Origin: a virus | Strand: one strand, 5' to 3' | DNA length: 53,951 nucleotides | IMG/VR virus record: IMGVR_UViG_3300048672_001423 | Coordinates: 1-53,951 of that record | Shown: piece by piece, positions 45,393-53,716 of the stretch | Layout: every line of letters starts with the position of its first letter | How positions within the stretch are numbered: position 1 is the stretch's first letter | The notes under the pieces: generated by a model | Told to the model about the DNA's origin: nothing | Seen by the model: only the letters and a program-made list of their open reading frames with translations | Database searches by the model: none | Program-made: the position numbers and the translations under genes

Positions 45393-45464
45393 TGCGGATT
45401 AGAGCAGCGGTAGCTCGCTAGGCTCATAACCTAGAGGTCGATAGTTCAAATCTATCATCCGCAA
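45393..45464 (+). tRNA. tRNA-Met (CAT)
   Basis: 72 bases folding as a cloverleaf: 7-bp acceptor stem (TGCGGAT with ATCCGCA), D stem GAGC/GCTC, anticodon stem CTAGG/CCTAG with loop CTCATAA, T stem GATAG/CTATC with loop TTCAAAT, and discriminator A. No CCA is encoded. Anticodon CAT reads Met; initiator or elongator (or a modified Ile) cannot be told. Confidence 0.9.
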
Positions 45465-45558
45465 CTAAAAAAATGAAAAAACAAAATCTAAATATCAGTA
45501 GTCTTTTACCGCAGAATTTATCTGAGGATTTTTGACTATGATTTTGTTTATCATTTAA

Positions 45559-45591
45559 AAAGTCTTCTTATTAGCTTAGGAAGACTTTTTT
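45559..45591 (+). terminator. Stem-loop with T-run between tRNA genes
   Basis: AAGTCTTC near 45560-45567 pairs with GAAGACTT near 45580-45587, followed by T residues. It may end a primary transcript or separate the tRNA units; it could also be an RNase processing element. Confidence 0.5.
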
Positions 45592-45596
45592 TATAT

Positions 45597-45672
45597 CTGA
45601 TATTGGAGAAGTTAGGCCGTTTTCGTCTGCTTTGGGAGCAGAAGACCGTAGGTTCAAATCCTACATATCAGA
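45597..45672 (+). tRNA. tRNA-Pro (TGG)
   Basis: 76 bases: acceptor CTGATAT/ATATCAG, D stem GAGA/TTTC, anticodon stem TCTGC/GCAGA with loop TTTGGGA (anticodon TGG), variable AGACC, T stem GTAGG/CCTAC with loop TTCAAAT, and discriminator A. It lies behind the first tRNA after a hairpin. Confidence 0.85.
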
Positions 45673-45683
45673 CTTATTTTTTT

Positions 45684-45769
45684 AGAGAGTAAACATTGAT
45701 GGTGATATGGGCCGACTGCTAATCGGTTCGACGATTAAAACCGTTTCGGTTCGATTCCGATGCTCTCTG
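45684..45769 (+). tRNA. tRNA-Ser (GCT), class II, partly irregular
   Basis: 86 bases: acceptor AGAGAGT/GCTCTCT, anticodon stem around CTGCTAA with stem CCGA/TCGG (anticodon GCT), a long variable arm with a short ACG/CGT stem, and a T arm around GGTTCGATTCC with discriminator G. The D arm is weak (CAT/ATG) and position 8 is A, so this one is less canonical. It ends one base before the stop of the 45771 gene on the other strand. Confidence 0.65.
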
Positions 45770-45770
45770 C

Positions 45771-46130: not shown

Positions 46131-46162
46131 ACTTAGTGACAGTTTTTTTTCTGCCACTAAGT
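46131..46162. other. Stem-loop next to the pentamer array
   Basis: 12-base arms (46131-46142 and 46151-46162), paired with one mismatch (ACTTAGTG perfect with CACTAAGT, then CAG with CTG), and an eight-base loop of only T (plus strand) or A (minus strand). It lies between the 114-residue gene and the array, so in its mRNA it would be in the 5' leader. Confidence 0.6.
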
Positions 46163-46165
46163 ATT

Positions 46166-46615
46166 GAACTAAAAATAACTATACTAGGCTTTGCTTTACG
46201 CCACACTACTTTACTTAAAAAAACTATATTCGACATTACTTCACTTTACTATACAAGACAGCAAAATACCAAACTTAACTATACATAACTTAACAATACA
46301 ATACGGCAAATAACTAAACCACACTTTACTTCACATTACTAAACAGGACTTCAAAAAACAAAACTAAACCATACATAGCTTCACATAACCTCACACAAAA
46401 ATACTTTACTAAACGTTACAGTACGGAACAGTACTTAACCATACTATACCTCACAAAAAAATACTTCACAAGACATAACAATACTTCACATCACTTCACG
46501 ACAAAAAACTTAACTATGCCGCACTTTGCTCTACTTGACTGTACTTCACTATAAAAAACATTGCCTTACATCACTCTACTGAACATAACGGTACATTGAA
46601 ATACTAAAAACTACT
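46166..46615. repeat. Degenerate pentanucleotide array, 90 phase-locked units (NNACN)
   Basis: Cut into pentamers from 46166, 72 of 90 consecutive units have A at position 3 and C at position 4. Another 10 read NNAAA and 6 read NNGCY; only 2 fit none. The last base is T in 36, A in 24, C in 6 and G in 6 of the matching units. The register never slips over ~450 bp. First two bases vary freely. No long gene is contained. On the minus-strand RNA the repeat reads (N)GU(N)(N). The array touches the stop codon of the upstream gene (46611). Confidence 0.85.
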
Positions 46616-47192
46616 TAATTGGTGTGATTTTCTCTAATTCAAATCTACCAAATTCGCCAGTATGCTCTGGACGATAAGAACCTACACCTAAGTATCTTCC
46701 TGCATACTTAATGATGTCGTTTACCGTTTCTTGAGTCAATTTGTTCTTATCATCATCATCAAGAATTAAAGTAAATTCACAACGCCATTCATTCCATTTA
46801 GGTCTGTGAACCATAATACGTGCCTTGACGTTTTTGTTTACTGCTGAGCGAGAATCTATTTCATCAAACTTTCTAAATTTGATTCTTTCTTCTAAAATCC
46901 TCCATTGACCAGCTACGATGTTTTTTAATGAACGTGAGCTGTTACCGACTTTAGCTTTTACAAAAGAACCACCATTACAGAACGCTTGCTTGAAATGTGA
47001 TGATGGAATATAAAACAATCCGTTTTCATCAATGTATGAGTGAAAATGAGCTAGCTTTTCCTCTGGTGTCGCTGCATCAGAGTTTTCGATAATACGGCCT
47101 CTCGACTTTTCCCATTCTGCAAGCTTCTTGTCGTCCATGCGATGTTGCATATATGGCGTTACTCCAACGATTTGTAATTTGAATTTTCTCAT
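46611..47192 (-). CDS. Phage family protein with C-terminal GxGSYRP motif (RAMP-like pattern)
   Basis: 193 residues. The opening LQIVGVTPYMQHRMD and the end YAGRYLGVGSYRPEHTGEFGRFELE match a family of phage proteins of unknown function with a (G)VTP..MHR start and G(V/I)G.(W/Y)RP...FGRFEV end. Its strand-helix-strand pattern is reminiscent of RAMP-type RNA-binding folds, which is only a suggestion. It is followed directly by the pentamer array. Confidence 0.55.
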   Translation of the reverse strand: MRKFKLQIVGVTPYMQHRMDDKKLAEWEKSRGRIIENSDAATPEEKLAHFHSYIDENGLFYIPSSHFKQAFCNGGSFVKAKVGNSSRSLKNIVAGQWRILEERIKFRKFDEIDSRSAVNKNVKARIMVHRPKWNEWRCEFTLILDDDDKNKLTQETVNDIIKYAGRYLGVGSYRPEHTGEFGRFELEKITPIK

Positions 47193-52507: not shown

Positions 52508-52578
52508 GTTTTCAAAGTGTTAATTATCTGATTATTTCGTGCGACACCCTGAAAGCGTGGTTTACAAAGTTGGTTCAA

Positions 52579-52659
52579 GTCCAACGATGCAAAGGCGTAA
52601 AAGCAAGCATAAAAATGCCAGCATTTTTCACTATGTCATCGGCTTTGCCTTTGTTGGAA
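52579..52659 (-). other. attC-like integron site B
   Basis: On the minus strand: TTCCAAC (52659-52653; R''-like), AAAG, GCAAAG (L''), variable hairpin region with AAAAATGC/GCATTTTT, CTTTGC (L'), ATC, GTTGGAC (52585-52579; R'-like, fits GTTRRRY). The 4 versus 3 base spacers give the asymmetry typical of attC. It follows the HNH gene and shares 62 identical bases with site C. Confidence 0.75.
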
Positions 52660-52667
52660 AACTTTTA

Positions 52668-53270
52668 CTACGCAAATAATGATAAAGGCTCTAAAACTTT
52701 GGGTTGCTTAAATCCAAAATCTGCATTTGTTTTTTCTCTATGACATTTTTTGCACTTAAATTGATAATTTGACAACCACCCACCACCGCCACCAAATTTA
52801 ACGGGGAAAATATGGTCTAATTCTACTGATTTGTCATAATCATTAATACCACAAATTTCGCAGTTATACCCTCCTGTGTAGTGCCTTCTTAACATTCTTA
52901 GTGTTGAAGTATTACCAGATATGATTTGAAAAACGTTATTGGCAAAACTATTGCATTCATCTGTTGCCCATCTTTTTCTTCTTCCTTCAAGTTGTTTGCC
53001 ACAACCGCAAGCACATTTTCCATTTTTATCTTCAAATAATTCTGACATAGGTACAGAACAATGTCTTTGATATGGATTTAAAAGATTTTTTTGGTTTATT
53101 TTATCATAAATAGGCGTTGGGTCAAAGAAAAAAACTCTTTTCACTATTGGTTTTAAAATGATAGCATTATTATTTGTCAAATCAAGTGGTTTTCGACACC
53201 ATGATGGTTGAATATCATATAATTTGCTACCTGTTTTTTTGAAAGACGATAAATCCTTTATAGCAGTCAT
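52668..53270 (-). CDS. HNH endonuclease-like protein (cassette gene)
   Basis: 200 residues. An N-terminal zinc-type module (CACGCGKQLEGRRKRWATDEC, approx residues 86-106) is followed by a CEIC...LDHIFPVKFGGGG...CKKCH core at ~137-177, a typical HNH with two cysteine pairs and LDH as the catalytic histidine motif. Such proteins occur as restriction or homing nucleases and as cassette genes. Its stop is eight bases before site B. Confidence 0.75.
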   Translation of the reverse strand: MTAIKDLSSFKKTGSKLYDIQPSWCRKPLDLTNNNAIILKPIVKRVFFFDPTPIYDKINQKNLLNPYQRHCSVPMSELFEDKNGKCACGCGKQLEGRRKRWATDECNSFANNVFQIISGNTSTLRMLRRHYTGGYNCEICGINDYDKSVELDHIFPVKFGGGGGWLSNYQFKCKKCHREKTNADFGFKQPKVLEPLSLFA

Positions 53271-53383: not shown

Positions 53384-53464
53384 CTCCAACGATGCAAAGG
53401 CGTAAAAGCAAGCATAAAAATGCCAGCATTTTTCACTATGTCATCGTCTTTGCTCCAGTTGGAA
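53384..53464 (-). other. attC-like integron site C
   Basis: Minus strand TTCCAAC (53464-53458), TGGA, GCAAAG, hairpin region as in B, CTTTGC, ATC, GTTGGAG (53390-53384). The last base is G rather than the consensus pyrimidine. The stop of the membrane-protein gene (53465) abuts it. 62 bases (53385-53446) are identical to site B (52580-52641). Confidence 0.75.
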
Positions 53465-53716
53465 TTAAAAAAACACGATTGAAATAGCCAATCCAGATAG
53501 CGAACCAAGTGCCGCCCCAAACGCATAAATAAATCGGTCATTTGTGCTTCCAAATGCGATTTTCTTTACATTAAATGACCAAATCAATGAAATTATGAAT
53601 CCTGCGACAACTGTACCATGAAGGTTTTTTGTTGATATAAAGTGAGTATTTATTGCGACAAAAAATACTTGCATAAACCCAGTTGATAGTAATTTAATTT
53701 CTTCTTTCATATTCAC
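53465..53716 (-). CDS. Small membrane protein (cassette gene), 83 aa
   Basis: 83 residues with two or three spans (about 12-29, 35-52 and 65-83), the last ending at the C-terminus. The N-terminal segment is MNMKEEIKLLSTGFMQVFF. It starts ~40 bases after site D and ends directly at site C. Small membrane proteins are frequent among integron cassette genes. Function unknown. Confidence 0.6.
   Translation of the reverse strand: MNMKEEIKLLSTGFMQVFFVAINTHFISTKNLHGTVVAGFIISLIWSFNVKKIAFGSTNDRFIYAFGAALGSLSGLAISIVFF

What the first reader, a model, noticed from the sequence alone, without database searches (positions are those of the whole stretch)
46166..46615. About 450 bp of phase-locked five-base periodicity (NNACN) between two early phage genes
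Cutting the sequence every five bases from 46166 gives 90 units. 72 have A then C at positions 3-4, 10 read NNAAA, 6 read NNGCY and only 2 fit none. The frame never slips, though positions 1, 2 and 5 vary freely. Copying by slippage alone would give identical units, so selection to keep AC every half helical turn (or GU every five nucleotides in the minus-strand RNA) is implied. One precedent for five-nucleotide spacing is TRAP, which binds 11 NAG triplets spaced by two bases; here triplet-plus-two spacing fits, but with ~90 units and a different triplet. Other ideas are an origin-like or partition element, a DNA-wrapping site, or a long RNA decoy. It borders a stem-loop with an eight-T loop and a coiled-coil gene that could be its reader. 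I do not know a described element like this.
Basis: seen in the sequence. Interest (0 to 1): 0.93.

Follow-up and report, generated by a model that had tools for sequence, protein, structure and literature searches.

The report
Phage RNA guides in five-base code
The strange five-base rhythm is a string of guide RNAs for a CRISPR-like phage system called VIPR, first described in a 2026 preprint, here in a form that spells its fixed bases differently and packs about nine guides end to end.

Summary
In detail: 90 in-phase pentamers, 72 with AC, against at most 22 in 2,000 shuffles. A second layer was missed: the NNAAA units recur mostly every 9 units (45 bp). The gene next to the array (46611-47192, minus) is a RAMP protein. 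A profile of it and its relatives matches the solved SUSP1 Vipr protein over full length (E 1.6e-16), and its model resembles Csm3/Cas7. On the mRNA strand the array reads [A/U]-G-Y-N-N. This is the vrRNA format (GGY/NN "or a related consensus") of VIPR, Viral Interference Programmable Repeat (preprint PMC13142463). All 14 relatives found carry sense-strand NGYNN arrays beside this gene: 36 arrays in 151 kb, none antisense, none distant. The NN pairs resemble codon positions 1-2, as the published one-base-skip rule predicts for guides aimed at coding DNA. UUU units probably separate about nine guides in a tail-less concatemer. So this is a VIPR system with a relaxed first base in its constant triplet and UUU punctuation. 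No target was found; expression, targeting and punctuation are inferred. Whether the preprint's unseen supplement already covers this form is unknown.

The parts
46611..47192 (-). vipr gene, 193 aa RAMP protein that is expected to bind the array RNA
   Evidence: profile of 13 relatives matches PDB 36pp_D SUSP1 Vipr E 1.6e-16 over 1-186; model matches Csm3/Cas7; phrog_4652
46166..46615 (-). vrRNA (guide) array, 90 NGYNN units on the minus strand, starting in the vipr stop codon
46556..46595 (-). predicted guide 1, 8 units
   Evidence: between UUU-type units 87 and 78; boundary inferred
46506..46550 (-). predicted guide 2, 9 units
   Evidence: between UUU units; boundary inferred
46461..46500 (-). 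predicted guide 3, 8 units
   Evidence: between UUU units; boundary inferred
46401..46455 (-). predicted guide 4, 11 units
   Evidence: between UUU units; boundary inferred
46356..46395 (-). predicted guide 5, 8 units
   Evidence: between UUU units; boundary inferred
46311..46350 (-). predicted guide 6, 8 units
   Evidence: between UUU units; boundary inferred
46266..46305 (-). predicted guide 7, 8 units
   Evidence: between UUU units; boundary inferred
46221..46260 (-). predicted guide 8, 8 units
   Evidence: between UUU units; boundary inferred
46176..46215 (-). predicted guide 9, 8 units
   Evidence: between UUU units; boundary inferred
46131..46162 (-). 12-bp hairpin with eight-A loop just 3' of the array RNA; possible 3' cap or tail
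   Evidence: -16.7 kcal/mol, z -6.5; no counterpart shown in relatives

Best explanation
This is a VIPR system of a probably Bacteroidota-infecting phage. The 450-bp array follows vipr directly and is read on the minus strand as a precursor of about nine guide RNAs (vrRNAs). Vipr subunits line up along the RNA, one per five nucleotides, holding the constant G-Y step (the first base of the usual GGY triplet is mostly A/U here) and leaving the next two bases exposed. The NN pairs together base-pair with double-stranded DNA of a competing phage or satellite, one target base being skipped after each pair, and binding blocks transcription. UUU units, mostly every ninth, mark the ends of single guides. 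Shown here: the array, its strand and linkage to the gene, family membership of the protein, fixed GY with free first base and NN, codon-like NN pairs. Inferred: transcription, processing at UUU, DNA binding, the skip rule in this clade, target identity. Taken from the preprint for the SUSP1 and P. fulva systems: RNP formation, one-base skip, repression.
For: Vipr homology: (E 1.6e-16 full length); RAMP fold. Arrays beside the gene in all 14 relatives, 36 of 36 on the sense strand and within 1.2 kb, none elsewhere in 151 kb. Format NGY/NN against GGY/NN in four phages carrying published-type Vipr, parsed alike. No other conserved neighbour gene. NN pairs fit codon positions 1-2 (25.8 log units over genome dinucleotides, more than 50 over other phases), order matters (0 of 20,000 swaps), and the following base does not behave as a wobble base. 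Paralogous arrays differ at position 1 five times in 20 units and at NN twice in 40 positions. UUU spacing and AGTA[TA] before every UUU in L128. Array RNA unstructured beyond chance: no. Published mechanism: PMC13142463.
Against: No target found for four window guides in IMG/VR by exact skip-rule search. First base of the triplet is not G. Most window guides would have 8 full units, under the published 9-16. No conserved accessory (vap) gene seen. Expression untested. The codon-phase signal is indirect. UUU boundary evidence within the window alone is modest (p 0.03) apart from the spacing.
Confidence: 0.9

Rival explanations
1. Same VIPR system, but UUU does not separate guides: overlapping (staggered) vrRNAs are cut from the array without regard to UUU, or it acts as one long RNA, and UUU units are merely positions that Vipr does not hold.
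For: The preprint mentions staggered arrays with overlapping vrRNAs. The window blocks are short. UUU is confined to the window and L128 arrays.
Against: Regular 9-unit spacing; in L128 all six UUU units follow AGTA[TA], p 9e-7, and AGTAT, AGTAA or AGTTT end many single arrays elsewhere.
Confidence: 0.3
2. Same VIPR system, but the guide reads three bases per unit (NNN, i.e. GY/NNN) without a skipped target base, because position 1 is no longer a fixed G.
For: Position 1 is variable and its pairing with position 4 fits codon positions 3-1 better than genome dinucleotides by 9.7 log units.
Against: NN plus next position 1 does not avoid stop codons (23 seen, 27 expected); the position 5 / position 1 pair fits genome dinucleotides, not codon 2-3; position 1 drifts more than NN between paralogous arrays.
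Confidence: 0.12
3. A TRAP-like regulatory leader: Vipr, or another repeated subunit, wraps the GU-repeat RNA to control its own mRNA, and the NN bases carry no guide information.
For: Five-nucleotide spacing; arrays sit in the 5' or 3' UTR of vipr.
Against: Homology to a demonstrated guide-RNA protein; NN pairs have codon-like composition and order; several separate arrays per locus with different NN.
Confidence: 0.05
4. Ordinary degenerate microsatellite or a by-product of base composition.
For: A/C-rich sequence; one weak 15-bp tandem repeat is reported inside.
Against: Two positions fixed and three free over 450 bp without a phase slip; same pattern, strand and place in 14 relatives at 43-55% protein identity.
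Confidence: 0.01

Closest known systems
VIPR systems of Escherichia phage SUSP1 and a Pseudomonas fulva prophage (PMC13142463; Vipr in PDB 36pp)
   Same: Homologous Vipr over full length; phage-encoded; pentameric array of constant triplet plus variable NN flanking vipr on its sense strand.
   Different: First triplet base A/U rather than G; about nine guides in one tail-less run with UUU every 45 nt instead of separate ~100-nt vrRNAs with structured tails; no recognisable vap gene; little sequence identity (about 25-29% over full length to SUSP2 and similar phages).
CRISPR class 1 effectors with Cas7-type RAMPs (Csm3)
   Same: Fold; a RAMP filament on a guide RNA that interrupts base pairing at regular steps (established knowledge; preprint).
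   Different: No repeat-spacer array and no cas genes recognised; pentamer code instead of contiguous spacers.
TRAP (trp RNA-binding attenuation protein)
   Same: Works alike in one respect: repeated subunits read a triplet every five nucleotides of single-stranded RNA.
   Different: Triplet GY-based rather than NAG; 90 units; RAMP reader; the two spacer bases appear to carry information.

Membership tests
VIPR | Vipr protein: RAMP homologue with a single RRM-type core | tested here: met
   36pp_D E 1.6e-16 over residues 1-186 of the profile; Csm3/Cas7 fold, Z 10.4
VIPR | Flanking array of pentamers, constant triplet alternating with hypervariable NN | tested here: met
   N-G-Y/NN in the window and all 14 relatives, only on the sense strand near vipr
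VIPR | Constant triplet exactly GGY (not required of all types: the preprint allows a related consensus) | tested here: not met
   Position 1 is A 41, U 35, G 8, C 6 in the window; clade G 14%; published-type phages mostly G
VIPR | 9-16 repeats per vrRNA | tested here: inconclusive
   Predicted window guides 8-11 units, L128 blocks 9-14, other arrays 7-32; true ends unknown
VIPR | Invariable structured 3' tail on each vrRNA | tested here: inconclusive
   Only one hairpin after the whole array; some relatives have tails
VIPR | Encoded mainly in phages and proviruses | tested here: met
   Window has terminase, tape measure and tail fibre genes; 13 relatives in viral contigs
VIPR | Accessory vap gene (typical, not universal) | tested here: inconclusive
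   No neighbour gene conserved across the loci; vap models not available
VIPR | vrRNA expressed and bound by Vipr | not testable with these tools
   needs small-RNA sequencing and pull-down
VIPR | Noncontiguous DNA recognition with a one-base skip | tested here: inconclusive
   Codon-phase statistics agree; no target found
CRISPR-Cas class 1 | Repeat-spacer array with cas genes | tested here: not met
   Only the vipr-like RAMP recognised; neighbours have no cas match above coiled-coil noise; no such repeat
TRAP target | NAG triplets spaced by two nucleotides and a TRAP protein | tested here: not met
   Triplet is NGY; reader is a RAMP

The most novel reading that the evidence does not exclude
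A distinct VIPR type in Bacteroidota phages: only the G-Y step is held by Vipr (HGY/NN rather than GGY/NN), and about nine compact guides of roughly 8 dinucleotides are encoded as one tail-less precursor punctuated by UUU every 45 nt, so that one 450-bp element addresses about nine targets with its own way of separating guides.
Probability: 0.45. Interest if true: 0.72.

Novelty: new variant of a known kind. Interest (0 to 1): 0.64.

Why it matters
VIPR is a months-old discovery proposed as older than CRISPR. This clade suggests that the first base of the constant triplet is dispensable, a natural experiment on what Vipr reads in its RNA. The UUU-punctuated concatemer would be a compact multiplexed guide array. 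The codon-phase statistic offers a way to see the one-base-skip code in uncultivated phages without knowing any target. It also gives a function to at least part of the unexplained family phrog_4652.

Tried and rejected
Single-sequence fold of the gene gave a useless model (pLDDT 38); the alignment-based model was usable. Coiled-coil gene as reader: not conserved. Array RNA structure: no more stable than shuffles (z -0.36), which suits a single-stranded guide. Rfam: only tRNAs in the window and tmRNAs in relatives; no ribozyme between guides. Targets: 1.35 Mb of local loci including the window itself showed nothing above shuffled guides, so no self-target. Exact skip-rule searches in IMG/VR with four window guides gave 2, 10, 37 and 27 hits and an L130 guide none; none extended convincingly into the neighbouring NN pairs or converged on one gene, so none is counted as support. 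PADLOC and Pfam hits of the coiled-coil gene are coiled-coil cross-matches. The preprint's supplement (figs S17-S19) could not be opened, so I could not check whether this consensus or array form belongs to one of its seven types. The pdb fold library ends on 8 April 2026 and did not list 36pp among the rows shown; that link rests on sequence.

Full report
Observation. Shuffled sequence never exceeds 22 in-phase AC, and this is the strongest period-5 stretch of the window. A second layer was missed: the NNAAA units stand at units 2, 11, 20, 29, 38, 47, 59, 68, 78 and 89, mostly nine units (45 bp) apart; 21 of 200,000 random placements do as well.

The minus-strand gene 46611-47192 ends where the array begins. 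It has no Pfam match and belongs to PHROG 4652 of unknown function. A sequence search of solved structures gave one significant hit, 36pp chain D, 'SUSP1 Vipr protein' (E 9.3e-7). A profile of 13 family members raised this to E 1.6e-16 over the full length. A model made with these relatives (pLDDT 70) matches Csm3 and other Cas7-type RAMPs (Foldseek E 6.5e-7; VIA-align Z 10.4, 162 residues at 4.0 A). Vipr is the protein of Viral Interference Programmable Repeat systems, reported in a preprint of April 2026 (PMC13142463). Its guide RNAs (vrRNAs) are tandem YNNGG pentamers, i.e. constant GGY alternating with hypervariable NN. The NN pairs recognise double-stranded DNA with one target base skipped after each, the complex represses transcription, and natural targets are satellites and rival prophages.

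The array in that light. Read on the minus strand, NNACN becomes N-G-Y-N-N: second base G, third base Y (U 83, C 7), then two free bases. The first base, G in the published systems, is A 41, U 35, G 8, C 6 here. Arrays of SUSP2, VSe11, MakoManhole and LESphi2 parsed with a similar script mostly show G at that place. So this clade keeps the G-Y step but not the first G.

Conservation. Relatives of the gene were found in 13 viral contigs and one Draconibacterium MAG. All 14 carry NGYNN arrays beside the gene. At a strict detector score there are 36 arrays in 151 kb, all on the sense strand, all within 1.2 kb of vipr (26 on the 3' side, 10 on the 5' side), none antisense and none elsewhere. The detector selects on positions 2 and 3, so only positions 1, 4 and 5 are informative about composition. 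No other neighbouring gene is shared by more than a few loci, which removes the coiled-coil gene as reader.

Is NN a guide? Three tests need no target. (i) Two pairs of paralogous arrays (L130, L127) differ at position 1 five times in 20 units but at NN only twice in 40 positions; the numbers are small. (ii) Over 547 units the NN pairs fit codon positions 1-2 of genes in the same loci better than genome dinucleotides by 25.8 log units and better than other codon phases by more than 50, whereas the pair made of position 5 and the next position 1 fits genome dinucleotides best. Reversing the order of the two bases destroys the fit (0 of 20,000), and the joint pairing adds to the marginals (4 of 2,000 shuffles as good). 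(iii) NN plus the following position 1 does not avoid stop codons (23 seen, 27 expected), so position 1 is not read as the wobble base. This is what guides aimed at coding sequence, with the wobble base skipped, would look like; the preprint reports that alignment for SUSP1 targets. It is indirect and could contain other dinucleotide preferences.

Punctuation. In L128, the other tail-less concatemer, six UUU units split the array into blocks of 9-14 units and every one follows AGTA[TA] (p 9e-7); AGTAT, AGTAA and AGTTT also end many separate arrays in other loci. In the window the sequence effect is weaker (p 0.03) but the spacing is regular. I read UUU as the boundary between guides, giving about nine guides of 8-11 units; the preprint's range is 9-16. 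The preprint also mentions staggered arrays of overlapping vrRNAs, so the boundary claim stays open. The array RNA is no more structured than shuffles. A 12-bp hairpin with an eight-A loop follows it and may cap the precursor.

Targets. None found. The window's own genome and 1.35 Mb of other sequence give nothing above shuffled guides. Exact skip-rule searches in IMG/VR returned hits that neither extend nor converge. Exact matching over 16-18 bases was required and the host is only known as probably Bacteroidota (helicase 46% to Bacteroides phage BS-TP2; Draconibacterium MAG relative), so this is weak evidence either way.

Verdict. Membership in VIPR is close to certain. Guide function follows from it and from the comparative tests; expression, processing and targeting are inferred. 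The relaxed first base and the UUU-punctuated concatemer make it a variant of the described kind. The preprint's text allows 'a related consensus' in some of its seven types and its supplement could not be read, so the variant may already be listed there.

Noticed in passing
L139:5650-5970 (Draconibacterium MAG) and L137:1651, 2984, 3102 (Gordonia phage MakoManhole): Each vrRNA array is followed by (in L137 also preceded by) a tRNA-like minihelix with a T-arm (loop UUCGAUU or UUCGACU) and an acceptor-like stem, not called as tRNA by ARAGORN; tails that host tRNA-processing enzymes could cut. The preprint's main text does not mention this.
   Followed up: partly
L126:5656, L132:5618, L133:5619: Arrays followed by a shared tail motif (GCCT, stem, GGGGUUAA or GAGGUUAA, stem closed) that could form a pseudoknot, like the published SUSP1 tail.
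   Followed up: partly
L129:5700-6103 and L134:1438-1785: Full-length tmRNA genes (Rfam RF00023) near vipr in two viral contigs.
   Followed up: no
L190:1284-1480: A second Bacteroidota genome has a distant Vipr (E 4.6e-23) whose arrays, read on the minus strand like the gene, are GGC/NN with little variety in NN, so both triplet forms seem to occur in the phylum.
   Followed up: partly
45393-45770: Three tRNA genes (Met, Pro, Ser) on the plus strand, opposite to the surrounding genes.
   Followed up: no
52539-52680 and 53430-53490: ORF translations suggest a near-identical direct repeat (MQRRKSKHKNASIFHYVI) near the right end of the window.
   Followed up: no
L134:5001-5594: The vipr relative in L134 has one in-frame stop codon: a decayed gene or a sequencing error.
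   Followed up: no
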